DNA of 64,000 nt from assembly GCF_900104625.1 (NCBI RefSeq), contig NZ_FNVZ01000005.1, positions 558,001-622,000 on the forward strand, read 5' to 3'. This DNA is from Leptotrichia massiliensis (GTDB lineage: Bacteria > Fusobacteriota > Fusobacteriia > Fusobacteriales > Leptotrichiaceae). Positions 30,589-61,757 of this stretch are shown one piece after another; positions within the stretch are counted from its first letter, which is position 1; every line of letters begins with the position of its first letter. Under the pieces are notes generated by a model, which did no database searches, was not told the origin of the DNA, and was given only the letters and a program-made list of their open reading frames with translations. The translations under genes and the position numbers were made by a program.

Positions 30589-31008
30589 ATGAATGGTGTT
30601 TCAAAAAACAAAAAAATGCAGATGGAAATCCTTGATGTTCCAAAAATTACGAATACAGCAAGATCAAAAGAAGATGCAAGAAGAGAAAGAATAGTAGCTC
30701 CTACAGAAGTTAGAAAAAAACTTTCCAGAACAGCGGGGTTAAATATGAGAGTAATAGTTATAGTTAGTATTTATGTCGCTATTGTAACAATAGTAGCTTT
30801 ACTTCGTGTTTTTGTTTCATTTAATATTTCTGAGTTACAAAGAGAAATTAATACCAAAGAAAAACAAGTAGTAATGTTACAAAAAGAAATTGCATTACTA
30901 GATACTCAAATGGTCAACAAGGAAGATTTAAAAACTAAGGAAATAAAAGCCAAAGAAAGAGGTTTCGAATTTCCAAATTCTCCAATATATATAGATTTGA
31001 ATAATTAA
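30589..31008 (+). CDS. FtsL-like cell division protein
   Basis: A 139-residue bitopic protein: basic cytoplasmic N-terminus (about 1-53), one membrane span (about 55-76) and a periplasmic coiled coil (about 80-115, with the ISELQREINTKEKQVVMLQKE heptads quoted in part), ending with a short ERGFEFPNSPIYIDL tail. Primary identity to FtsL is low, as is usual; the call rests on topology and its place six bases after rsmH. The nearest GGAG is 13 bases from ATG, so initiation may depend on rsmH translation. A possible FtsB/DivIC partner is at 10936. Confidence 0.75.
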   Translation: MNGVSKNKKMQMEILDVPKITNTARSKEDARRERIVAPTEVRKKLSRTAGLNMRVIVIVSIYVAIVTIVALLRVFVSFNISELQREINTKEKQVVMLQKEIALLDTQMVNKEDLKTKEIKAKERGFEFPNSPIYIDLNN

Positions 31009-31017
31009 ACTAAATAA

Positions 31018-31053
31018 AATATAACATTAAAAGTACAGGTGTTATATTTTTTT
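31018..31053 (+). terminator. Intrinsic terminator after the FtsL-like gene
   Basis: AATATAACA (31018-31026) pairs with TGTTATATT (31040-31048) and is followed by T residues. The stem is AT-rich. Confidence 0.75.
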
Positions 31054-31347
31054 ATTGACAATAACTGAAAAAATTGGTAACATATTAATATAATGACTAA
31101 GCAGTCAACTTATTTTGTTATAATTATAGTAAAACTATTTTAAGAAAATTTTGAGATTCTGTTCATTTTGTTCAATCCTAAATTTAGTTTTTAGAAATAT
31201 AACATTAAAAAAATCGAGTATAATTACTAAATAAAAAAAGGTAAATTATAGGTTTGAGAGCAGTAATCATAGTTGTGAAGTTTTGTTTTAAAGTAATATT
31301 ATTATAGTTATAAAAAAGTAAAAATAAATTTTGAAGGAGGTTATATC
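31054..31347 (+). other. Regulatory gap upstream of the V-ATPase operon
   Basis: No gene here. It contains a promoter (31055-31083), a degenerate relative of the dispersed repeat (from 31125: TATAGTAAAACTATTTTAAG, and later ATCCTAAATTTA and ATCGAGTATAAT as in copy B's surroundings), and the AAGGAGG Shine-Dalgarno site of the first ATPase gene. If the promoter is used, the operon has an untranslated leader of about 250 bases. I recognise no known riboswitch. Confidence 0.5.
31055..31083 (+). promoter_or_regulatory. V-ATPase operon promoter
   Basis: Perfect TTGACA (31055-31060), 17 bases, TAACAT (31078-31083). Confidence 0.6.
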
Positions 31348-31659
31348 TTGGCAAAAGAAGTTTTACAAAAAATAAAAGATGCTGAAAGTGAATCAGATAA
31401 GATTATTGCTGATGCAAATGAAAAGGCAAAAGATGTTTTGAAAAATATTGAGCAGAAAATAAAAGATGACGGCGATAAACTAATTTCTGAGACAAATCTT
31501 GAAGTAGAAAATTTGAAAAAAGAGTCAATGGATGATGCTGAAAAAAGAGTAAAATCTCTTTTGAGCAGTGAAGAAGAAAATGTAAACAAAATTCTTGAAA
31601 TTGACGAAAAGAAAATAGATGAAGTTGTTAATTTATTAGCAGAGAGGATTGTGAAATAA
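31348..31659 (+). CDS. V-type ATPase peripheral stalk subunit (H/G-like, NtpF position)
   Basis: Forms with subunit E the coiled-coil stator that holds the catalytic head. The 103 residues are almost wholly helical with heptads (LQKIKDAESESDKIIADA, then NEKAKDVLKNIEQKIKDDGD), and have no membrane span, as in archaeal/bacterial A-type subunit H. The start is TTG, with an AAGGAGG site eight bases upstream and no better start. It overlaps the subunit I gene by one base (TAATG). It is first in an operon whose order I-K-E-C-F-A-B-D matches the ntp cluster of Enterococcus. Confidence 0.88.
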   Translation: MAKEVLQKIKDAESESDKIIADANEKAKDVLKNIEQKIKDDGDKLISETNLEVENLKKESMDDAEKRVKSLLSSEEENVNKILEIDEKKIDEVVNLLAERIVK

Positions 31660-33632
31660 TGGCAATAGTTAAAATGAGCAAGTTTGATTTGGTTGTTTTC
31701 GCAGAACAAAGGGCTAAAGTATTAAAGAAACTTCAAAAATTTAAAGAAGTAAATTTTGTAGATATTGAGTTGCATGATGAAAATGGGGAACTTAGTAAAG
31801 ATGCTGTTGAAGGTGTTACTAAATATGTAAATAATGAAGAGCTGACACACATTGATGAACGTCTTTATCAGTTAAGCAATGCGATTTCTCTTATTAAAAA
31901 ATATGATGAAAGAAAAACACGTTTAAGAGATGTTATTCATGGAAATGAAAATTATACATTTGATGAATTGGCAAGAAAAGCATTGACTTATGACTGGAAG
32001 AAAGTTTCTTCTGAACTGAATAAAATTGGAACACAATATTCACAAATAAAATCCGAAATTTCTAAAAAATACATGCGTTATGATGAAATTGATTTGTGGG
32101 AACGACTAGATGTAAATCCTAAAGAATTAAAGAACTTGAAAAAAGTAAATACATTTTTAGGTACAGTACCGATAAAGTTAAAAGGAAGCTTTATCGATGG
32201 TATTTCTGAGCTTGATAAAACTTATTATGAAGAGCTGAAAATAGTAAAAGATGAAGTGTATTATCTTGTAATTGCAAGTATTGATGAAAGTGAAAAGGAA
32301 AAGTTGGCTGAAGTTTTTAGAAATAGCAGTTTTACAGTGGAAAATCTTGACATTGATGCAGTTCCACAAGATTATAAAAATGAACTGCAAAAGGAAATTT
32401 CAGAGCTGAAGAAGGAAAAACGAAGACTAAAAGCTCAAATTAAAACTTATAGTGAAGATTTGACTGATTTACAGGCAGTTTACGAATATATGCAAAATAA
32501 AAAGTTAAGAATTGTTGAATCAGAAAAATTAGCACAGACTGAAAATACTATTTTGATAAAAGGATGGATTCCAACTGAAAAAGTAAGTGAATTTGAGAAA
32601 GTGATAAAAGATGAGGCTGGGGATAATTATTACTTGACATTTACAGATGCGGATAGGGATGATGCGACAGTGCCTATTAAGCTGAAAAATGGAAAAGTTG
32701 CAAGTACATTTGAAAATTTGACTGGAATGTATGCATATCCAAGATATAATGAAATTGACCCAACGCCACTGTTTACGCCGTTTTATATCTTATTTTTTGG
32801 AATGATGGGAGCAGATGTAGGTTATGGGCTTGTGTTACTGCTTGCAACAATGTTTGTTTTAAAAGTAGTGAATTTAAGTTCTCAAATGAGAAAATCTATT
32901 AAGTTTTTCTTTTATTTAAGTTTTTCTGTTATTTTCTGGGGACTTTTATATGGTTCATATTTTGGAGCGACAATTCCAGGAATGTGGAGATTGGTAGATC
33001 CAGCGTCACAATATAACGATTTATTGATAGGTTCAATTGTATTTGGTGTAGTTCATATATTTGTTGGACTGGCAATAAAAGCATATATGTTAATTAGAGA
33101 TGGTAAATCATTGGAAGCAGTTTATGATGTATTGTTTTGGTATATGGCTCTTATTGGAGGAATGTTATTCCTAATATTTAAGTTAATGAATTTGTCAGCA
33201 GTTGTGGCAAACGTGTCAATGTGGGTAATGATTGCCGGAATGGCTGGAATCGTACTTACTGGTGGACGTGAAGCTAAAGGAGTCGGTGCAAAATTAGGTG
33301 GCGGACTTTACAGCCTTTATGGAATTTCAAGTTATGTAGGAGATTTCGTATCCTATTCAAGACTTATGGCTTTGGGGCTTTCTGGTGGATTTATTGCGTC
33401 AGCTATAAATATGATAGCAGGAATGATCGGTGGAAATTGGTTTGGTATGATTTTTATTCCAGTAATACTGATAGTAGGACATTTGTTTAATATGTTCTTA
33501 TCTTTTCTAGGTGCTTATGTTCATACTTCGAGACTTATGTATGTAGAGTATTTTGGAAAATTTTACGAAGGTGGAGGAAAACCATTTAAAGATTTTAGAA
33601 CAGAAAATAAATATATAAATCTTGATGATTAA
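31659..33632 (+). CDS. ntpI: V-type ATPase subunit I (a-subunit)
   Basis: Membrane stator that forms the ion half-channels against the K ring. The 657 residues divide into a soluble N-terminal arm with coiled coils (about 1-350) and a membrane domain with about seven or eight spans (from about 365, beginning TPLFTPFYILFFGMMGADVGYG). The essential Arg lies in the late VSYSRLMALGLSGGFIASAIN helix, and the HTSRLMYVEYFGKFYEGGGKPFKDF end is typical. It begins on the stop codon of the preceding gene. Confidence 0.95.
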   Translation: MAIVKMSKFDLVVFAEQRAKVLKKLQKFKEVNFVDIELHDENGELSKDAVEGVTKYVNNEELTHIDERLYQLSNAISLIKKYDERKTRLRDVIHGNENYTFDELARKALTYDWKKVSSELNKIGTQYSQIKSEISKKYMRYDEIDLWERLDVNPKELKNLKKVNTFLGTVPIKLKGSFIDGISELDKTYYEELKIVKDEVYYLVIASIDESEKEKLAEVFRNSSFTVENLDIDAVPQDYKNELQKEISELKKEKRRLKAQIKTYSEDLTDLQAVYEYMQNKKLRIVESEKLAQTENTILIKGWIPTEKVSEFEKVIKDEAGDNYYLTFTDADRDDATVPIKLKNGKVASTFENLTGMYAYPRYNEIDPTPLFTPFYILFFGMMGADVGYGLVLLLATMFVLKVVNLSSQMRKSIKFFFYLSFSVIFWGLLYGSYFGATIPGMWRLVDPASQYNDLLIGSIVFGVVHIFVGLAIKAYMLIRDGKSLEAVYDVLFWYMALIGGMLFLIFKLMNLSAVVANVSMWVMIAGMAGIVLTGGREAKGVGAKLGGGLYSLYGISSYVGDFVSYSRLMALGLSGGFIASAINMIAGMIGGNWFGMIFIPVILIVGHLFNMFLSFLGAYVHTSRLMYVEYFGKFYEGGGKPFKDFRTENKYINLDD

Positions 33633-33677
33633 TTTTATAATTTAAGTTTAGTAAAAATATTTAACAAAAAAAAATAG

Positions 33678-34172
<495 letters not shown>

Positions 34173-34178
34173 TTTTAA

Positions 34179-34198
34179 AAGGGGTAGCTATACCCCTT
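34179..34198 (+). other. Perfect intra-operon hairpin between ntpK and ntpE
   Basis: AAGGGGTA (34179-34186), four-base loop GCTA, TACCCCTT (34191-34198). The stem is GC-rich against the local background but is not followed by a T run, so it looks more like an mRNA stabiliser, processing site or attenuator than a full terminator. It lies 7 bases after the ntpK stop. Confidence 0.8.
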
Positions 34199-34218
34199 AA
34201 ATATGGTAAGGAGTGAAT

Positions 34219-34770
34219 ATGTCTAATTTAAATAATTTAACATCAAAAATATTAAATGATGCTAAAGAGGAAGCCGATAAAATTGTAAAAAGTGCTGAGG
34301 AAAAAGCAAAGCAAAAATACGATTTGGAAATAAAAAAAGCTATTGCAAAAAAACAAACATTGCTTGAAAATGCAAGAAGAGAGCGTGAACTGCTTTCAGA
34401 CAGAATTAAGTCGAGCGCAAATTTAAAGGCTAGAAATGAAAAATTAAAGGCAAAACAGACAGTAATTAACAAAGTTATAGATAAATTAAAGGAAAAACTT
34501 GTTAATATGAATGAGAGTGATTATATTAATTATTTGAATCAGAATATTGATAAAAGTTCTATAGCTGGAAAAGAGTTAATTGTAAAAAAAGAATTTGCAG
34601 ATAAAGTGAAACAAGAGTTTTCAACTGCAAAAGTTAAGGAAGATGAGTTTGTAACTTCGGGATTTATTATTGAAGAAAATGGCATTCAGGAAAATTACAC
34701 TTTTGAAGTGAAACTGGATTTTATGAGAGATGAACTGGAAGTTGAAATTTCCAAGCTTCTTTTTTCATAA
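34219..34770 (+). CDS. ntpE: V-type ATPase subunit E (peripheral stalk)
   Basis: Partner of the H/G-like subunit in the stator. The 183 residues have a long N-terminal helix (about 10-90, ILNDAKEEADKIVKSAEEKA...) and a C-terminal globular part ending FMRDELEVEISKLLF. The frame is open from a GTG at 34213, but that overlaps the TAAGGAG site, so ATG 34219 is the likely start. Separated from subunit K by the hairpin and from subunit C by a 93-base gap. Confidence 0.92.
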   Translation: MSNLNNLTSKILNDAKEEADKIVKSAEEKAKQKYDLEIKKAIAKKQTLLENARRERELLSDRIKSSANLKARNEKLKAKQTVINKVIDKLKEKLVNMNESDYINYLNQNIDKSSIAGKELIVKKEFADKVKQEFSTAKVKEDEFVTSGFIIEENGIQENYTFEVKLDFMRDELEVEISKLLFS

Positions 34771-34863
34771 TGTAAATAAAATTTATAGAAATTTAAGTTT
34801 TATATTTTCTTTTACAAAATAAATTTTATAATTAACTGGAATTTGTAAACAAGGGAGAAAAAA

Positions 34864-35862
34864 ATGGATAGAATGGATTACGGACAAAGTGTCGTAACTA
34901 TTAGAGTACTTGAAAAGAGGCTTTTGACTAGAAATAGGCTAGAACGTATGATAGAAGCCGAAACTCCCGAAGAAGTGCTAAAATTATTGGGAGAAACGGA
35001 ATATTCTCAAGATATGGCTGATATTCAAGGCAGTCAAGATTATGAAACAATACTGAAAAGAGAAACAGAACGTGTTTTTTCCATTGTAAGAAGTATGGTT
35101 AAAAATACTGCAATTGTTGATATTTTATCTCTTAAATATGATTATCATAATCTAAAGGTATTATTAAAAAGTAAAATAACAGGAAAAGATTTTTCAAGTC
35201 TGCTTATGCAGGCTGGGACGATTGATGCTGGGAAATTTAAGACAAAATTTGAATTGCAAAGCAATGATTTGCCACAGGAAATTTTGGATGCGATTAACGA
35301 AGTACAGAAGGACTTTGAAGAAAATCATGATCCCCAAAGAATTGATATACTCGTAGATAAACATTATTTTAAAAATTTATCAAGACTATCAAGAGAAATT
35401 GATGTGAAAGTTATTACTGATTATGTTGAAGGACTGATTGATTTTCAAAATATGATAACTTTATTTAGAGTGAAAAAACAAAATCGTGATGCAAGATTTC
35501 TGGAAACTGTTATTTTTGAAGGTGGGACAATTTCAAAAAATAAAATTGTTGAGTCAATAAATGACAATACAGATACTATTTTGAATAAGTTCAAGAAGGA
35601 AAAATTGGGAATATATCTAACAAAAGGACTAGAAGTATTTAGTGAAACAAAAAGATTATCAGAACTTGAAAAAATTTCTGATAATTACTTGATGGAATTA
35701 AATAAAGAATCAAAATATGTTGTATTTGGACCAGAGCCATTATTTACATATCTAGTTGCAAAAGAGCGTGAAATTAATGCAATAAGAATGATAATGGTAA
35801 GCAAGATAAACAATATAAGTTCGGATAAAATAAGAGAAAGGTTGCGTGAAACTTATGCATAA
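34864..35862 (+). CDS. ntpC: V-type ATPase subunit C (central stalk socket, d-subunit)
   Basis: Joins the central shaft (D and F) to the K ring. The 332 residues include the YGQSVVTIRVLEKRLLTRNRLERMIEAE start, a YDYHNLKVLLKSKI repeat region (about 98-111) and the PLFTYLVAKEREINAIRMIMVSKINNI end, all characteristic. The 93 bases upstream contain no gene and no convincing terminator. The end overlaps the subunit F gene. Confidence 0.94.
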   Translation: MDRMDYGQSVVTIRVLEKRLLTRNRLERMIEAETPEEVLKLLGETEYSQDMADIQGSQDYETILKRETERVFSIVRSMVKNTAIVDILSLKYDYHNLKVLLKSKITGKDFSSLLMQAGTIDAGKFKTKFELQSNDLPQEILDAINEVQKDFEENHDPQRIDILVDKHYFKNLSRLSREIDVKVITDYVEGLIDFQNMITLFRVKKQNRDARFLETVIFEGGTISKNKIVESINDNTDTILNKFKKEKLGIYLTKGLEVFSETKRLSELEKISDNYLMELNKESKYVVFGPEPLFTYLVAKEREINAIRMIMVSKINNISSDKIRERLRETYA

Positions 35863-36163
35863 AATAGGTGTAGTTGGAGATAAAGATTCTATTTTATCAT
35901 TTAAAGCATTGGGAATTGACGTGTATCCAGTTATTACAAAAGAAGAAGCAAGAAGTACAATAGATGAAATGGCAAGTAATAACTATGGTATTATCTTTGT
36001 AACAGAGCAAGTTGCAGTTATGGTAGAAAGTACTATTGAAAGATACAATCGTGAAGTATTTCCAGCTGTTATTTTGATTCCGAATAATCAAGGAAGTTTG
36101 GGGATAGGGCTTAAAAAGATAGATGAGTACGTTGAAAAAGCGATAGGATCTAATATATTTTAG
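35855..36163 (+). CDS. ntpG: V-type ATPase subunit F
   Basis: Small Rossmann-like subunit bound to the rotor shaft. The 102 residues begin [20 protein letters not shown], the normal family start, and include [10 protein letters not shown] and an [12 protein letters not shown] loop. An in-frame GTG at 35846 has better Shine-Dalgarno spacing (GAAAGG four bases before) and would add three residues; I prefer ATG 35855 because it matches the family N-terminus. The gene overlaps the end of ntpC. Called NtpG in the Enterococcus scheme. Confidence 0.9.
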
Positions 36164-36180
36164 ATGAAAGGAGAAATTCA

Positions 36181-37956
36181 TTGAAAACAGGAAGAATAAT
36201 AAAAGTATCTGGACCTCTTGTTGTTGCAGAAGGTATGGAAAATGCCAATGTATATGATGTGGTAAGAGTTTCAGAGAAAAAATTGATAGGTGAAATTATT
36301 GAAATGAGAGGCGATCAGGCTTCTATTCAAGTATATGAAGAAACATCTGGAATTGGTCCAGGAGAAGAGGTTTTTACAACTGGAGAGCCTTTGAGTGTTG
36401 AATTGGGACCTGGACTTATTGAAGCGATGTTTGATGGAATTCAGCGTCCACTAAAGGAATATCAGGAAATAGCAGGAGATTTTTTGGATAAAGGGGTAGA
36501 AGTAAATCCTTTAAATAGAGATAAAAAATGGGAATTTGAGCCTGTTTTATCTACTGGAGCAGAAGTTGAAACTGGAGATATCCTTGGAACTGTTCAGGAA
36601 ACTTCTGTTGTAAGCCATAAAATTATGGTTCCAGCAGGAATTAAAGGAACTTTGAAAACTATTAAAAGTGGAAGCTACACAGTAGTTGATACAATTGCAG
36701 TTATTGAAACAGAAAAAGGTGAATTGGTAGAAGTTCAAATGATGCAAAAATGGCCAGTAAGACGTGGAAGAAAATACAAGCAGAAATTAAATCCAGAAGC
36801 ACCACTAATTACAGGACAAAGAGTAATTGATACATTCTTTCCTGTAACAAAAGGTGGAACGGCATGTGTACCAGGACCTTTTGGATCTGGAAAAACCGTT
36901 GTGCAGCACCAAATGGCTAAATGGGCAGATGCTGAAATTATAGTTTATGTAGGATGCGGAGAGCGTGGAAATGAGATGACAGACGTTCTTATGGAATTTC
37001 CAGAAATAATAGATCCAAAAACAGGACAATCACTAATGAAAAGAACTGTACTTATAGCAAATACTTCAAATATGCCAGTTGCAGCCAGAGAAGCTAGTAT
37101 TTATACTGGAATTACAATTGCAGAATATTTTAGAGATATGGGATACTCTGTTGCAATAATGGCGGATTCCACTTCAAGATGGGCAGAAGCTCTTAGGGAA
37201 ATGTCTGGACGGCTTGAAGAAATGCCAGGAGATGAAGGATACCCAGCGTATCTAGGTTCAAGAGCTGCTGAGTTTTATGAAAGAGCGGGGAAAGTAATTT
37301 GTCTTGGACAAGATGGACGAGAAGGAGCACTTACAGTTATCGGAGCGGTTTCTCCTCCAGGTGGAGATATTTCAGAGCCAGTATCACAAGCAACACTTCG
37401 TATTGTTAAGGTATTCTGGGGATTAGATGCAAATCTAGCGTATAGACGTCACTTCCCAGCAATTAACTGGTTAAATTCATACTCATTGTATCAAGGAAAA
37501 GTTGATAACTGGATGGATCAGAATGTAGGGTCTAAATTTTCTAAAAATAGAGCACGTGCAATTTCATTATTACAAGAAGAAAACAGTCTACAGGAAATAG
37601 TTAGACTGGTTGGTAAGGATACTTTGTCAGAAAAAGATCAGCTTAAACTGGAAATTGCAAAATCGATAAGGGAAGATTACTTGCAGCAAAATGCATTTAT
37701 GGAGTCAGATACTTATACTTCGCTTGAAAAACAGGATAAAATGCTTGATATAGTATTGAAATTCTATGATGAGGGATTAAGAGGACTTGAAAATGGAGCT
37801 TATTTAAATGAAATCGTTGCAATGCCTGTAAGAGAAAGAATCGCAAGAGCAAAATATTTACCTGAGGCAGAGTTAGATAAAATTGAAGAAATAGCAAAAG
37901 AATTGGAAAAAGAAATTGATGAACTTGTAAATAAAGGAGGTGTAGCAAATGCTTAA
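36181..37956 (+). CDS. ntpA: V-type ATPase catalytic subunit A
   Basis: Hydrolyses ATP in the A3B3 head. The 591 residues have the N-terminal barrel ([19 protein letters not shown]), the A-subunit-specific insert (about 115-185), Walker [12 protein letters not shown] (about 235-245), the catalytic Glu in [11 protein letters not shown], and [18 protein letters not shown]. The start is TTG with AAAGGAG seven bases upstream; no ATG is nearby, and the residues from this codon match the family start. It overlaps ntpB by eight bases. Confidence 0.97.
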
Positions 37957-39328
37957 GGAATATAAAACTATCAAGGAAATAGTAGGGCCGTTGATGGTTG
38001 TTGAAGGTGTTGAAGGAATAAAATACGAGGAACTTGTTGAAATTGAAACACAAAACGGTGAGCTTCGTCGTGGACGTGTGCTTGAAGTAAATGGCGATAA
38101 GGCCGTAGTACAGTTATTTGAAAATTCGGCTGGAATTAATTTAAAGGATTCAAAAGTAAGATTTTTGGGTAGACCTTTGTCGCTTGGAGTATCAGAAGAT
38201 ATGATAGGGCGTGTATTTGATGGATTGGGTCGACCAAAAGATAATGGACCAAAAATAATTCCTGAAAAAACATTGGATATAAATGGAACGGCTATAAATC
38301 CAGTTGCACGTGATTATCCGTCAGAATTTATTCAAACGGGAGTTTCTGCGATTGATGGACTAAACACCCTTGTTAGAGGGCAAAAATTACCAATTTTCTC
38401 TGGTTCAGGGCTTCCACATGCAGAATTAGCACTTCAAATCGCAAGACAGGCAAAAGTTTTGGGAACAGATTCAAAATTTGCGGTGGTATTTGGAGCGATT
38501 GGAATCACGTTTGAAGAAGCTCAGACATTTACGGAAGATTTTGTAAAAACAGGAGCAATTGACAGGGCGGTATTATTTATGAACTTGGCTAACGATCCTG
38601 CAATTGAACGTTTGTCTACACCAAAAATGGCACTTACTTGTGCAGAATACTTGGCATTTGAAAAAGGAATGCACGTACTTGTAATCTTGACTGACTTGAC
38701 TAACTATTGTGAAGCATTAAGGGAAGTTTCGGCGGCAAGAAAAGAAGTTCCTGGAAGAAGAGGATACCCTGGATACTTGTATACTGACTTATCCACAATT
38801 TATGAAAGAGCAGGAAGAATTAAAGGGCGTGAAGGATCAATTACGCAAATACCTATTTTAACAATGCCAGAAGATGATAAGACACATCCAATTCCAGATT
38901 TGACTGGATATATTACAGAGGGGCAAATAATCTTGTCAAGAGATTTATACAAACAGAACTTAATGCCTCCAATAAATGTTTTACCATCACTTTCAAGATT
39001 GAAGGATAAAGGAATTGGAAAAGGAAAAACTAGAGAAGATCATGCAGATACAATGAACCAATTATTTGCGGCTTATGCAACTGGTAAGGAAGCTAAGGAG
39101 CTGGCTGTAATCCTAGGGGAATCAGCATTGTCTGAAACTGATAAGGCGTTTGTTAAATTTACAACTGCATTTGAAGAGCAATATGTAGCTCAAGGGTTTG
39201 ACAATAACAGAACTATTGAAGACACTTTAAATTTAGGATGGGATTTACTAAAAATATTACCAAGAACAGAGTTGAAAAGAATTAGAGACGAATATTTGGA
39301 AAAATATTTGCCTGCAGGAGATGAATAG
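37949..39328 (+). CDS. ntpB: V-type ATPase regulatory subunit B
   Basis: Non-catalytic partner of subunit A. The 459 residues show [21 protein letters not shown], the degenerate nucleotide loop [19 protein letters not shown] where Walker A would be, [10 protein letters not shown]-like [14 protein letters not shown], and [19 protein letters not shown] with the arginine finger in PSLSRL. GGAGG lies inside the end of ntpA, so the two are translationally coupled and made in equal amounts. Confidence 0.97.
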
Positions 39329-39331
39329 ACT

Positions 39332-39970
39332 ATGGCAAGATTAAATGTAAATCCTACAAGAATGGAGCTGAGCCGTTTAAAAATACGTCTAAAAACTGCT
39401 AAAAGTGGACATAAACTGTTAAAGGACAAGCAAGATGAACTTATGCGTCAATTTATTATTTTAATAAAACAAAATAGAAAATTGCGTGAAGAAGTGGAAG
39501 GAAAATTACAAAATTCATTTAAGGATTTTTTACTTGCAAGAGGAGTAATGTCTGATGAAATGCTTGAAAATGCTATTGCATATTCGGAAGATAAACTTTT
39601 GGCAAATATAAAAACTAAAAATGTAATGAGTGTAATTGTACCAACAATGACTTTTAATAGAGATATGGAAAATGCAGAAGTATCTTATCCTTATGGATAT
39701 GCTCAAACATCTGCTGATTTAGATGATGCTGTTGATGGCTTGAATCGGGTAATGAAAGACTTGCTGGAACTGGCAGAAATCGAAAAGGCATGTCAGCTTA
39801 TGGCAGATGAAGTGGAAAAAACAAGACGGCGTGTAAACGCGCTGGAATATATGACGATTCCACAGCTTGAAGAAACAATCCGTTATATTCAGATGAAACT
39901 TGATGAAAATGAAAGATCAAGCATCACAAGGCTTATGAAAGTTAAGGATATGATGGCTGAAAAAGCATAA
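39332..39970 (+). CDS. ntpD: V-type ATPase subunit D (rotor shaft)
   Basis: Central coiled-coil shaft that couples ATP hydrolysis to ring rotation. The 212 residues start with [35 protein letters not shown], split long helices at both ends (about 8-60 and 130-205) and a [22 protein letters not shown] segment typical of the family. It begins three bases after ntpB. The operon ends here at a strong terminator. Confidence 0.96.
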
Positions 39971-40000
39971 AATTATAAATTTATTTTCAAATAAAAAAAT

Positions 40001-40028
40001 AGAGTCGCTTAATTGCGGCTCTTTTTAT
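40001..40028. terminator. Bidirectional terminator shared by ntpD and the convergent permease gene
   Basis: AGAGTCGC (40001-40008) pairs with GCGGCTCT (40015-40022) through one T-G pair. A T run follows on the plus strand and an A run precedes it, giving T on the minus strand. Its right arm lies inside the last codons and stop of the permease gene. Confidence 0.88.
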
Positions 40029-41157
40029 TTTCTTTATGTATTTTGTTTTGAATATTGTCAGAGGAATCACTAAAAATATCCCTAAAAAATCCAACTTCCA
40101 ATTCTCTTGAAAATACATTTTTTAAAATAATCATTACAACAGGTCCTATTAGAAATCCAATTACTCCAAAAATTTTAAAACCTGAATACATTGAAATCAG
40201 TGTGATTAATGGATGAACTCCCAAGTTTTGACTTACCAATTTTGGCTCTAGCATTTGTCTCACTGATAAAACAAATAGATAGATTATTATTAACATAATT
40301 CCTAATTTAATATCACCTAAAGCAAAAGAAATTATAGCCCATGGGATTAAAATTGTCCCTGCTCCTAAAATTGGTAAAGCATCGATTAGACAAATTATAA
40401 TTGACATTAGTAAAGGATAAGGAACGTTTAATTTTAGGAATGATAACAAGTTTAACCATATTAAAAGTTCAAAAAAACAAATTGTCATTAAGATAATCTG
40501 AGCTTTTATATAAGAGCCAAGAACCGTAAACATGTCTGTTTTAATATTAAAAACCTTATCCAGCCAAGATTTTGGCAACTGTTGTTCTAAAAAAGCTACA
40601 ATTTTATCTCTGTCAAGACTTATGAAAAAAGTTGCTAAAATTGTTATACAAATATATAAAATCAACGTTGGAATAGAAGTAATGAAATTTATCAATCCTT
40701 TTATAAATATTCCAAGCCGTGCAGAACCTGATGAAATAAAGCTGTTTATAGTATCATTTACCTGTCTTGTAAAACCTGAGGGGAAATTTCCTAAGTAAGT
40801 ATCGATTTTTGTCATATTGTCAGACCATAGTTTTTGTGCCATCTCGCTGTAATTGTTAAGATTTTGTGATAATTTGTAGATTTCACTTATTAACTTTAAT
40901 GACCCCCATCCAATTGCTCCAAAAAATATAATTAAAAATGTTACAATGGAAATTATTGTTGAAAGTTTTTTTGATAATTTCAATTTTTTTTCTAAAAATC
41001 TTGTAAATGGACGTGTTAAGATTGACAAAAATAATGCTATTGTGAATGGAAATAAAAATATTCCTAGCTTAAAAGCTATAAACACCACTAGCAAAATTAA
41101 AGCAATATATACAAGAAAATATAATTTTTTGAAGTCAAAATTTTTGTAACTTGCCAT
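40009..41157 (-). CDS. AI-2E (PerM/YdbO-type) family permease
   Basis: Polytopic membrane protein of 382 residues with about eight spans. It has a short N-terminal hairpin pair (about 12-48), a span at about 62-84, a soluble loop (about 90-145), then spans grouped in the C-terminal half. The GAGTILIPWAIISFALGDIKLGIMLIIIYLFV region and the QMLEPKLVSQNLGVHPLITLISMYSGFKIFG block (quoted in part) are hallmarks. Members include autoinducer-2 exporters and Na+/H+ antiporters, so the substrate is open. The last codons form an arm of the shared terminator. Confidence 0.88.
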   Translation of the reverse strand: MASYKNFDFKKLYFLVYIALILLVVFIAFKLGIFLFPFTIALFLSILTRPFTRFLEKKLKLSKKLSTIISIVTFLIIFFGAIGWGSLKLISEIYKLSQNLNNYSEMAQKLWSDNMTKIDTYLGNFPSGFTRQVNDTINSFISSGSARLGIFIKGLINFITSIPTLILYICITILATFFISLDRDKIVAFLEQQLPKSWLDKVFNIKTDMFTVLGSYIKAQIILMTICFFELLIWLNLLSFLKLNVPYPLLMSIIICLIDALPILGAGTILIPWAIISFALGDIKLGIMLIIIYLFVLSVRQMLEPKLVSQNLGVHPLITLISMYSGFKIFGVIGFLIGPVVMIILKNVFSRELEVGFFRDIFSDSSDNIQNKIHKENKKSRN

Positions 41158-60763: not shown

Positions 60764-61729
60764 ATGAAAAAAAATATAACAAAATTATTATTACTAACGT
60801 CAATTTTGTCAATTGGAAGTATTATGAATGCTCATAATAAAGATGTTTCGAATGATGTAAAAAAACCGCCAATAAATATACGTATTGATGAAAATGGACA
60901 AGTAATGAAAGATCAGACAGGTAATAATAACAGTAGTAGAAATAATAACAATCAGTCTGGAAGAGGTGGCACACAAACAATTAAAAATTCAGCAGGTTCA
61001 ATAACAGTTGATTCTTCTTACACTTCAACAGGACAAAATTATAGACAAAGATTTATAATTTTACATTATACAGCGATGAACAGAGAAGGGTCACTTAAAG
61101 CATTGACAACCAACGAAGTGAGTGCTCATTATTTAATATCAGATCAAAAAAATGATCCAGTATACTATTTAGTGGATGAAAATAAAAGAGCATGGCATGC
61201 TGGAGCAAGTGAGTGGAAAACCAGTAAAAATCTAAATGATAGTTCAATTGGAATTGAAATTGTTAATAATGGAAATGTAAGTGGAAATTTCGAGCCATTT
61301 AGAGATTTTCAAATTAAGGAAGTTGCTGTTCTTGTAAAATATTTAGCGGATAAATATGAAATTCCTGCAACGAATATTTTGGGACATTCAGATATTGCTC
61401 CTCAAAGAAAGCCTGATCCAGGTCCATTATTTCCATGGGAAGAATTGTATAGAAAACATAACATAGGAATGTGGTATGATAATGATAAAAAATCATTTTA
61501 CGAAACTGAATATTCAAGTACTTGGAATACATTACCAGCTGCCACTGTACAAGCAGAATTTAATAAATTTGGATATACAATTAGTACAACAGGAAAATGG
61601 GACGAGCAAACTAAAAATGTAATAAAAGTATTCCAATATCATTTTAGACCGTCTAAGTATGATGGAAAACTTGATTTGGAAACTTATGCGATCTTAAAAG
61701 CATTAAATGATAAATATAATAGTAAATAA
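60764..61729 (+). CDS. Secreted N-acetylmuramoyl-L-alanine amidase (AmiD/Amidase_2 type)
   Basis: Cleaves the amide bond between muramic acid and the peptide in peptidoglycan or its fragments. The 321 residues have a signal peptide (about 1-23), an Asn/Ser/Gly-rich linker (about 50-70), and an Amidase_2 domain (about 90-235) with the zinc ligands His101 (LHYTA), His208 (LGHSD) and Asp218 (KPDPG) and catalytic Glu165 (IGIEIVN). A C-terminal peptidoglycan-binding domain follows (about 255-318, VQAEFNKFGYTISTTGKWDEQT, quoted in part). AAGGAGG precedes ATG. Probably co-transcribed with the two genes before it. Confidence 0.93.
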   Translation: MKKNITKLLLLTSILSIGSIMNAHNKDVSNDVKKPPINIRIDENGQVMKDQTGNNNSSRNNNNQSGRGGTQTIKNSAGSITVDSSYTSTGQNYRQRFIILHYTAMNREGSLKALTTNEVSAHYLISDQKNDPVYYLVDENKRAWHAGASEWKTSKNLNDSSIGIEIVNNGNVSGNFEPFRDFQIKEVAVLVKYLADKYEIPATNILGHSDIAPQRKPDPGPLFPWEELYRKHNIGMWYDNDKKSFYETEYSSTWNTLPAATVQAEFNKFGYTISTTGKWDEQTKNVIKVFQYHFRPSKYDGKLDLETYAILKALNDKYNSK

Positions 61730-61735
61730 TTAATC

Positions 61736-61757
61736 AAGGGGTAATTTAGCCCTTTTT
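61736..61757 (+). terminator. Intrinsic terminator after the amidase gene
   Basis: AAGGG (61736-61740) pairs with CCCTT (61750-61754), loop of nine, then TTT. Short but GC-rich for this genome. Confidence 0.65.

What the first reader, a model, noticed from the sequence alone, without database searches (positions are those of the whole stretch)
34179..34198. Perfect hairpin directly after the rotor ring gene
An eight-pair GC-containing stem with a four-base loop follows the ntpK stop, inside the ATPase operon and without a T run. The K subunit is needed in about ten copies per complex against one to three for the rest. A 3' stabiliser or partial terminator here would raise ntpK mRNA over the downstream genes.
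Basis: partly seen in the sequence, partly recalled or inferred. Interest (0 to 1): 0.5.

Follow-up and report, generated by a model that had tools for sequence, protein, structure and literature searches.

The report
Small hairpin after ntpK, probably ordinary
A short RNA hairpin really does sit between two genes of an ion-pump operon in some mouth bacteria (Leptotrichia), but it looks like an ordinary gap structure of one sub-group, and nothing found here shows that it sets how much rotor protein is made.

Summary
The hairpin is real: AAGGGGTA-GCTA-TACCCCTT at 34179-34198, six bases after the ntpK stop and nine bases before the ntpE Shine-Dalgarno, in a Leptotrichia V-type ATPase operon (ntpG-I-K-E-C-F-A-B-D). 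No U-tract follows, so it is not an intrinsic terminator. As sequence alone it is not improbable: 25 of 60 random copies of the window hold such a stem. It occurs in 5 of 13 Leptotrichia genomes, at this place only; the stem is invariant (one genome has an extra G) while two of four loop bases vary, which suggests but does not prove constraint. Hairpins after ntpK recur in some streptococci, but gaps after ntpE and ntpF are at least as structured, so they are not specific to the ring gene. Best reading: a non-terminating intercistronic hairpin, perhaps a mild decay barrier, or nothing. The boldest reading, a switch on the ntpE ribosome site, is predicted by folding in 5 of 5 hairpin genomes and 0 of 8 others, but only with a wide ribosome footprint, and 12% of shuffles pair as well. 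Low interest.

The parts
33684..33698 (+). ribosome-binding region of ntpK (TTAGGAGGAAATAAA)
   Evidence: SD pairing -10.2 kcal/mol; 80-base fold around the start -4.6 against -5.4 to -14.3 for the other eight genes; but mean unpaired probability 0.56 is not the highest (D 0.66, C and E 0.58)
33699..34172 (+). ntpK, rotor-ring (proteolipid) subunit of the V-type ATPase
   Evidence: ORF; Pfam ATP-synt_C, 2 stretches, E 3.1e-35
34176..34178 (+). second in-frame stop (TAA TTT TAA), which speaks against readthrough of the ntpK stop into the hairpin
   Evidence: sequence
34179..34186 (+). left arm of the hairpin, AAGGGGTA
   Evidence: invariant in the 5 hairpin genomes apart from one extra G in G006
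34187..34190 (+). loop, GCTA; in the four relatives with the hairpin TTTA (three) or GTTA (one)
34191..34198 (+). right arm of the hairpin, TACCCCTT; its 3' part can instead pair with the ntpE Shine-Dalgarno
34208..34213 (+). Shine-Dalgarno of ntpE, AAGGAG
   Evidence: sequence; duplex energy -7.7 kcal/mol with the anti-SD
34219..34770 (+). ntpE, peripheral-stalk subunit E (ATG start; a GTG at 34213 in the same frame is the mechanical start)
   Evidence: Pfam vATP-synt_E, E 2.8e-10

Best explanation
A non-terminating RNA hairpin in the untranslated gap between ntpK and ntpE of one Leptotrichia sub-clade. If it has a role, the likeliest is a mild mRNA element of a known kind: after an endonuclease cut further downstream, the stem slows 3'-to-5' exonucleases, so that ntpG-I-K fragments last a little longer than the downstream part (as described for malE-malF and pufBA-pufLM). 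Shown: the hairpin, its place, the absence of a U-tract, and an invariant stem with a variable loop in five genomes. Inferred: that it forms in the cell, that it is a barrier, and that the effect is small. The excess of the ring subunit is more simply explained by ntpK's own good ribosome-binding site in a position uncoupled from its neighbours (inference).
For: Perfect stem, -12.5 kcal/mol. No terminator. Meets the 'stabiliser' sequence rules of PMC8219983 (section 11). Variable columns among the 5 hairpin genomes: stem 0 of 16 (one inserted G in G006 not counted), loop 2 of 4, 3' flank with the Shine-Dalgarno 0 of 20, ntpK third codon positions 40 of 158, ntpE third positions 54 of 184; stem against these third positions p 0.012 and 0.005, loop against stem p 0.03. 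One locus only, not a repeated element. In E. coli, 26 of 34 gene pairs with a stabilised upstream gene have a stable hairpin without U-tract at the 3' end of the stabilised part, though 17 of those 26 lie inside the downstream gene (PMC5927463, section 7). ntpK has gaps of 66 and 46 bases on its two sides while G-I, C-F and A-B overlap; over other bacteria the K junction is the longest of the I, K, C, F, A and B junctions in 54 of 105 loci.
Against: Present in only 5 of 13 Leptotrichia genomes. Stem conservation is not clearly better than that of the I-K gap (8 of 66 variable; p 0.16), and the 3' flank is just as invariant, so the whole region may be kept for the ribosome site. Folding of the gap is near chance (p 0.054 for the window, 0.11 for G001). 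Eight pairs with four G-C seems short for an exonuclease barrier (recalled judgement). A barrier here does not fit subunit needs, since it would raise I with K and leave A and B lower. No RNA data.
Confidence: 0.36

Rival explanations
1. Incidental structure without a role: the lineage acquired a GC palindrome in a gap whose only important part is the ntpE ribosome site; conservation reflects short divergence.
For: 25 of 60 random copies of the window hold such a stem; absent in 8 of 13 genus genomes and 15 outgroup loci; the four relatives are 93-97% identical to the window over 261 bases here; the stem is not significantly less variable than the I-K gap (p 0.16); G006 carries an extra G.
Against: Stem invariant while half of the loop columns vary (p 0.03); the E-C gap of the same genomes varies at 40 of 93 columns, partly because two of the five have other sequence there.
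Confidence: 0.32
2. Translational switch: the right arm (CCCCTTA) pairs either with the left arm or with the ntpE Shine-Dalgarno region (TAAGGAG). A ribosome waiting at the ntpK stop covers the left arm, frees the right arm and closes ntpE; without it the hairpin forms and ntpE is open. This would hold ntpE down while ntpK is heavily translated.
For: Partition-function folding with bases blocked up to +15 of the stop: Shine-Dalgarno unpaired 0.18-0.24 in 5 of 5 hairpin genomes and 0.69-0.93 in 8 of 8 others; unblocked 0.42-0.63 and 0.63-0.77. The 3' flank with the Shine-Dalgarno is invariant in the five.
Against: The effect depends on the assumed footprint: blocked to +9 it does not fall clearly (0.48-0.76, higher than unblocked in 3 of 5 and about equal in 2), to +12 it is 0.37-0.68. 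In the 8 genomes without the hairpin the ntpE start codon itself is predicted less open when the ntpK stop is occupied (to +15: 0.01-0.44 unpaired), so a closing of ntpE is not peculiar to the hairpin. A C-rich arm pairs with many Shine-Dalgarno sites: 11.7% of dinucleotide shuffles of the upstream 29 bases reach the native duplex energy. Invariant pairs give no covariation evidence. Confidence lowered from 0.14 to 0.12 on rereading.
Confidence: 0.12
3. Partial transcription terminator that lowers genes downstream of ntpK.
Against: No U-tract, no terminator call; would lower ntpA and ntpB; in M. maripaludis no internal terminator was found in the ATP synthase operon, and inserting terminators at atpK-atpE and atpF-atpA cut growth from 0.15 to 0.07 and 0.08 per hour (PMC10450193, passage; an archaeon, so only indirect).
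Confidence: 0.06
4. Binding site for a C-rich small RNA or for a protein (operator-like dyad), like the FoxJ sites (G-stretches in intra-operonic terminator hairpins) of Fusobacterium nucleatum.
For: G4 stretch in an intra-operonic hairpin; FoxJ of F. nucleatum is thought to use its cytosine hexamer on such sites (PMC11005410, section 10).
Against: No run of five C or G within 1.5 kb of the SRP RNA gene of this genome, near which foxJ lies in Fusobacterium (passage); by eye the neighbouring ORFs are not der or ylmH. The rest of the genome was not searched for such an RNA. The dyad occurs at this one place only, which is unlike an operator.
Confidence: 0.04

Closest known systems
Intercistronic 3' stabilising hairpins (malE-malF, pufBA-pufLM; E. 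coli differential-decay operons, PMC5927463)
   Same: Stem-loop without U-tract between two genes of one operon, directly behind a gene whose product is needed in excess
   Different: Short stem of 8 pairs; two low-copy subunit genes (G, I) lie in the same upstream part; no decay or 3'-end data; present in a sub-clade only
[quoted passage not shown] the SLOFE paper also names ATP synthases)
   Same: Meets the published sequence rules for a stabiliser stem-loop
   Different: No processing site or read-depth step known; another phylum; the method's stability factor was not computed
Hairpins in the ntpK-ntpE gap of streptococci and other Lactobacillales (this work)
   Same: Stems of 7-9 pairs with at least four G-C in the same gap in three separate loci (L221, L222, L246), and a seven-pair stem kept with changing loops in six related loci
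   Different: Unrelated sequence; 14 of the 30 Streptococcus loci read show no stem of five or more pairs in this gap
Translational control of ATP synthase operons (individual translation efficiencies follow subunit ratios)
   Same: ntpK has its own good ribosome site and does not overlap its neighbours
   Different: Known from F-type operons of Salmonella and Listeria (PMC10710512, passages), where atpE itself was left out of the correlation

Membership tests
Intrinsic (Rho-independent) terminator | G-C stem-loop | tested here: met
Intrinsic (Rho-independent) terminator | U-tract directly after the stem | tested here: not met
   next ten bases AAATATGGTA; scans find none here
SRPS stabiliser stem-loop (SLOFE rules, PMC8219983) | Intergenic, intra-operonic stem-loop, stem at least 6, dG below -5 kcal/mol | tested here: met
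   8 pairs, -12.5 kcal/mol; rules from passages
SRPS stabiliser stem-loop (SLOFE rules, PMC8219983) | U content at most 5 in the next ten bases, poly-U tail at most 3 | tested here: met
   three T, no run; rule
SRPS stabiliser stem-loop (SLOFE rules, PMC8219983) | Passes the method's stability factor threshold | not tested
   needs all stem-loops of the genome; not computed
SRPS stabiliser stem-loop (SLOFE rules, PMC8219983) | Processed transcript and unequal read depth on the two sides | not testable with these tools
   no RNA data at hand
Described structural RNA (Rfam) | Match to a described family | tested here: not met
   no match at 34179-34198 with E up to 1 in a search of 31000-40100
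Conserved structural RNA | Compensating base changes in the stem | tested here: inconclusive
   all eight pairs invariant in five genomes
Dispersed palindromic repeat (REP-like) or operator | Further copies in the genome | tested here: not met
   one exact copy in the genome; with up to 2 mismatches not more frequent than the reversed control in 12 of 13 genomes; stop-plus-hairpin pattern matches once in each of 4 of 13 genomes, each time behind ntpK

The most novel reading that the evidence does not exclude
A translation-dependent switch in a rotary ATPase operon: ribosomes that finish the ring gene cover the left arm, the freed right arm closes the ntpE Shine-Dalgarno, and so heavy ring synthesis holds back stalk synthesis, in one Leptotrichia clade.
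Probability: 0.1. Interest if true: 0.5.

Novelty: new member of a known kind. Interest (0 to 1): 0.17.

Why it matters
How operons make ten copies of one subunit and one of another is a general question. This site offers a natural comparison (five genomes with the hairpin, eight without, in one genus), but nothing here shows that the hairpin takes part in setting the ratio, and the subunit needs on either side argue that it does not.

Tried and rejected
Repeated element or operator: rejected. Terminator: rejected. Readthrough: a second in-frame stop follows after one codon. Rfam family: none. Internal promoter: one weak match on the minus strand, not more than in shuffles. FoxJ-like small RNA near the SRP RNA gene: nothing found there. 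Ring-specific hairpins in 132 loci with ntpK (80; a few organisms occur twice): 65 K gaps of 30 bases or more, 7 with a hairpin of at least 6 pairs and 3 G-C against 3.0 expected, 4 strong ones against 0.45 (two of the four, L114 and L246, are the same organism). By folding z-score of distinct gaps of 35-260 bases (after ntpD 35-200), p at most 0.05 in 13 of 50 K, 8 of 10 E, 6 of 16 F, 0 of 18 I, 0 of 3 C, 0 of 2 B gaps and 16 of 23 stretches after ntpD: some K gaps are structured, but this is not special to the ring gene. One K gap of the set (L092) is inflated by the split ntpK. Ribosome-site strength: ntpK has the weakest fold around its start, but ntpB and ntpG pair more strongly with the anti-Shine-Dalgarno and three genes have a higher mean unpaired probability, so this is only indicative.

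Dropped rows: G044/L030 (29% identity) was left out; L120-L122 (weak matches) were left out; L117 and L119-L122 were left out; three of 33 Streptococcus matches had no locus and were not read; identical gaps were counted once; insertions relative to the window were not counted. In one search the ntpK start was placed at an inner TTG in 4 of 17 genomes (G005, G007, G012, G026), the ntpI start wrongly in G005 and G008 and the ntpE start in G004; those values are not used. Searches ended with script errors (18 after 25 of 54 loci; the other 29 are); one search read minus-strand loci in the wrong orientation and is replaced. Paper searches that ran were made; I make no claim about what is or is not in print.

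Full report
What is there. The window lies in a Leptotrichia genome (named relatives; the relative G001 is one contig of 2,465,610 bases, the length given for L. buccalis C-1013-b in the abstract of PMC3035221, so I take G001 for that species). The operon is ntpG-I-K-E-C-F-A-B-D, supported by Pfam (G only below the curated cut-off). Between ntpK (stop 34170-34172) and ntpE (ATG 34219) are 46 bases, in which 34179-34198 form a perfect 8-pair stem with loop GCTA, about -12.5 kcal/mol. No U-tract follows and no terminator is called; a terminator-like site lies behind ntpD at 40001-40022.

Is it more than chance. As a sequence feature only modestly: 25 of 60 Markov copies of the window hold at least one such stem, and its gap folds with z -1.66, p 0.054. 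Among 39 same-strand gaps of 15-400 bases in a rough gene call of the window, six hold a hairpin of at least 6 pairs and 3 G-C, this one included.

Conservation. In the 13 Leptotrichia genomes searched, 5 (G000, G001, G006, G009, G010) have the hairpin, 8 do not, and it is in none of 15 further loci from the family and order. Four of the five match the exact stop-plus-hairpin pattern, and that pattern occurs nowhere else in the 13 genomes; G006 has one extra G. Among the five, variable columns are: stem 0 of 16, loop 2 of 4, 3' flank 0 of 20, 5' flank 1 of 6, I-K gap 8 of 66, E-C gap 40 of 93 (two of the five have other sequence there), third codon positions of ntpK 40 of 158 and of ntpE 54 of 184 (insertions not counted). 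Stem against ntpK third positions p 0.012, against ntpE 0.005, against the I-K gap 0.16; both variable columns in the loop p 0.03. This leans towards constraint on the stem, but the flank with the Shine-Dalgarno is equally fixed, and no pair varies, so there is no covariation evidence.

Wider comparison. Of 54 further loci (mostly Clostridia and relatives; gaps of 20 bases or less not scanned), a hairpin with at least four G-C was seen in Streptococcus phocae (L114) and in a 314-base stretch behind a distant homologue, L119. In Streptococcus, 33 of 118 genomes searched match and 30 loci were read: six related loci (L141, L149-L153) share a seven-pair stem TTCGCCT/AGG(C or T)GAA with changing loops, L139 (S. 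phocae again) and L157 have other stems with four G-C, and 14 of 30 show no stem of five or more pairs. In 132 loci with ntpK, the K junction is the longest of the I, K, C, F, A and B junctions in 54 of the 105 loci with all six; 65 K gaps are 30 bases or longer, and strong hairpins are found in 4 against 0.45 expected, two of the four from the same organism. Folding p at most 0.05: K 13 of 50, E 8 of 10, F 6 of 16, I 0 of 18, C 0 of 3, B 0 of 2, after ntpD 16 of 23. Thus hairpins in long gaps of this operon are found in several lineages, with unrelated sequences, but they are not tied to the ring gene.

Mechanism. In this operon ntpK has a good Shine-Dalgarno (-10.2) and the weakest fold around its start of the nine genes (-4.6 against -5.4 to -14.3); against this, ntpB and ntpG pair more strongly with the anti-Shine-Dalgarno (-13.0, -12.8) and the mean unpaired probability of ntpK (0.56) is below that of C, E and D. 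I hold translation to be the likelier source of the ring excess (inference) and the hairpin, if it does anything, to be a mild decay barrier of the kind found at 26 of 34 stabilised operon boundaries in E. coli, 17 of the 26 inside the downstream gene (PMC5927463, section 7); it meets the stabiliser sequence rules of PMC8219983.

A bolder reading. The right arm can also pair with the ntpE Shine-Dalgarno. If a ribosome at the ntpK stop blocks bases up to +15, the Shine-Dalgarno is predicted 18-24% unpaired in 5 of 5 hairpin genomes and 69-93% in 8 of 8 others. With blocking to +12 the five are at 37-68%, and to +9 at 48-76%, so the effect needs a wide footprint; and in the eight others the start codon itself is predicted less open when the stop is occupied (1-44% unpaired at +15) (all). 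Further, 11.7% of dinucleotide shuffles of the upstream part pair as well with the Shine-Dalgarno, so this may be a by-product of a C-rich arm. I give the mechanism 0.12 and its full form, with an effect on subunit ratios, 0.10.

Verdict. Observation correct; interpretation partly supported in kind (non-terminating intercistronic hairpin) and not supported in purpose. An ordinary feature of a sub-clade, worth one look in RNA-seq data.

Noticed in passing
L031/L092 (L. hongkongensis JMUB5056, G008:C1:823603-824074): ntpK is split by a frameshift (query 1-113 and 100-157 matched apart); sequencing error or a real break, not decided.
   Followed up: no
ntpE-ntpC gap, window 34771-34863 and L123-L134: The E-C gap is 93-94 bases in G000, G001, G006, G008, G011 but 223-301 AT-rich bases of other sequence in G002, G003, G004, G009, G010. 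This cuts across the grouping by the K-E hairpin, as recombination might.
   Followed up: partly
L082, L105, L106 (also L084, L085, L102), ntpE-ntpC gap: Clostridium-type loci: in L082, L105 and L106 AT-rich hairpins of 14-15 pairs, loop 3, in a 66-base gap behind ntpE; gaps of 62-67 bases in the other three also fold better than shuffles.
   Followed up: no
L141, L149-L153 (Streptococcus), ntpK-ntpE gap: A seven-pair hairpin whose stem is kept (one G-C to G-U) while the loop is TTCG, CGCG, CACG or TACG (flanks); a better case than the window for a conserved hairpin behind the ring gene.
   Followed up: partly
61736-61755: Hairpin AAGGGGTAATTTAGCCCTTT six bases after the stop of the ORF 60764-61729; similar left arm, but it runs into CCCTTTTT and looks like a usual terminator.
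   Followed up: partly
L232, L234, L238 (order-level sample around Streptococcus phocae), ntpK-ntpE gap: Gaps of 107-112 bases folding to about -28 kcal/mol.
   Followed up: no
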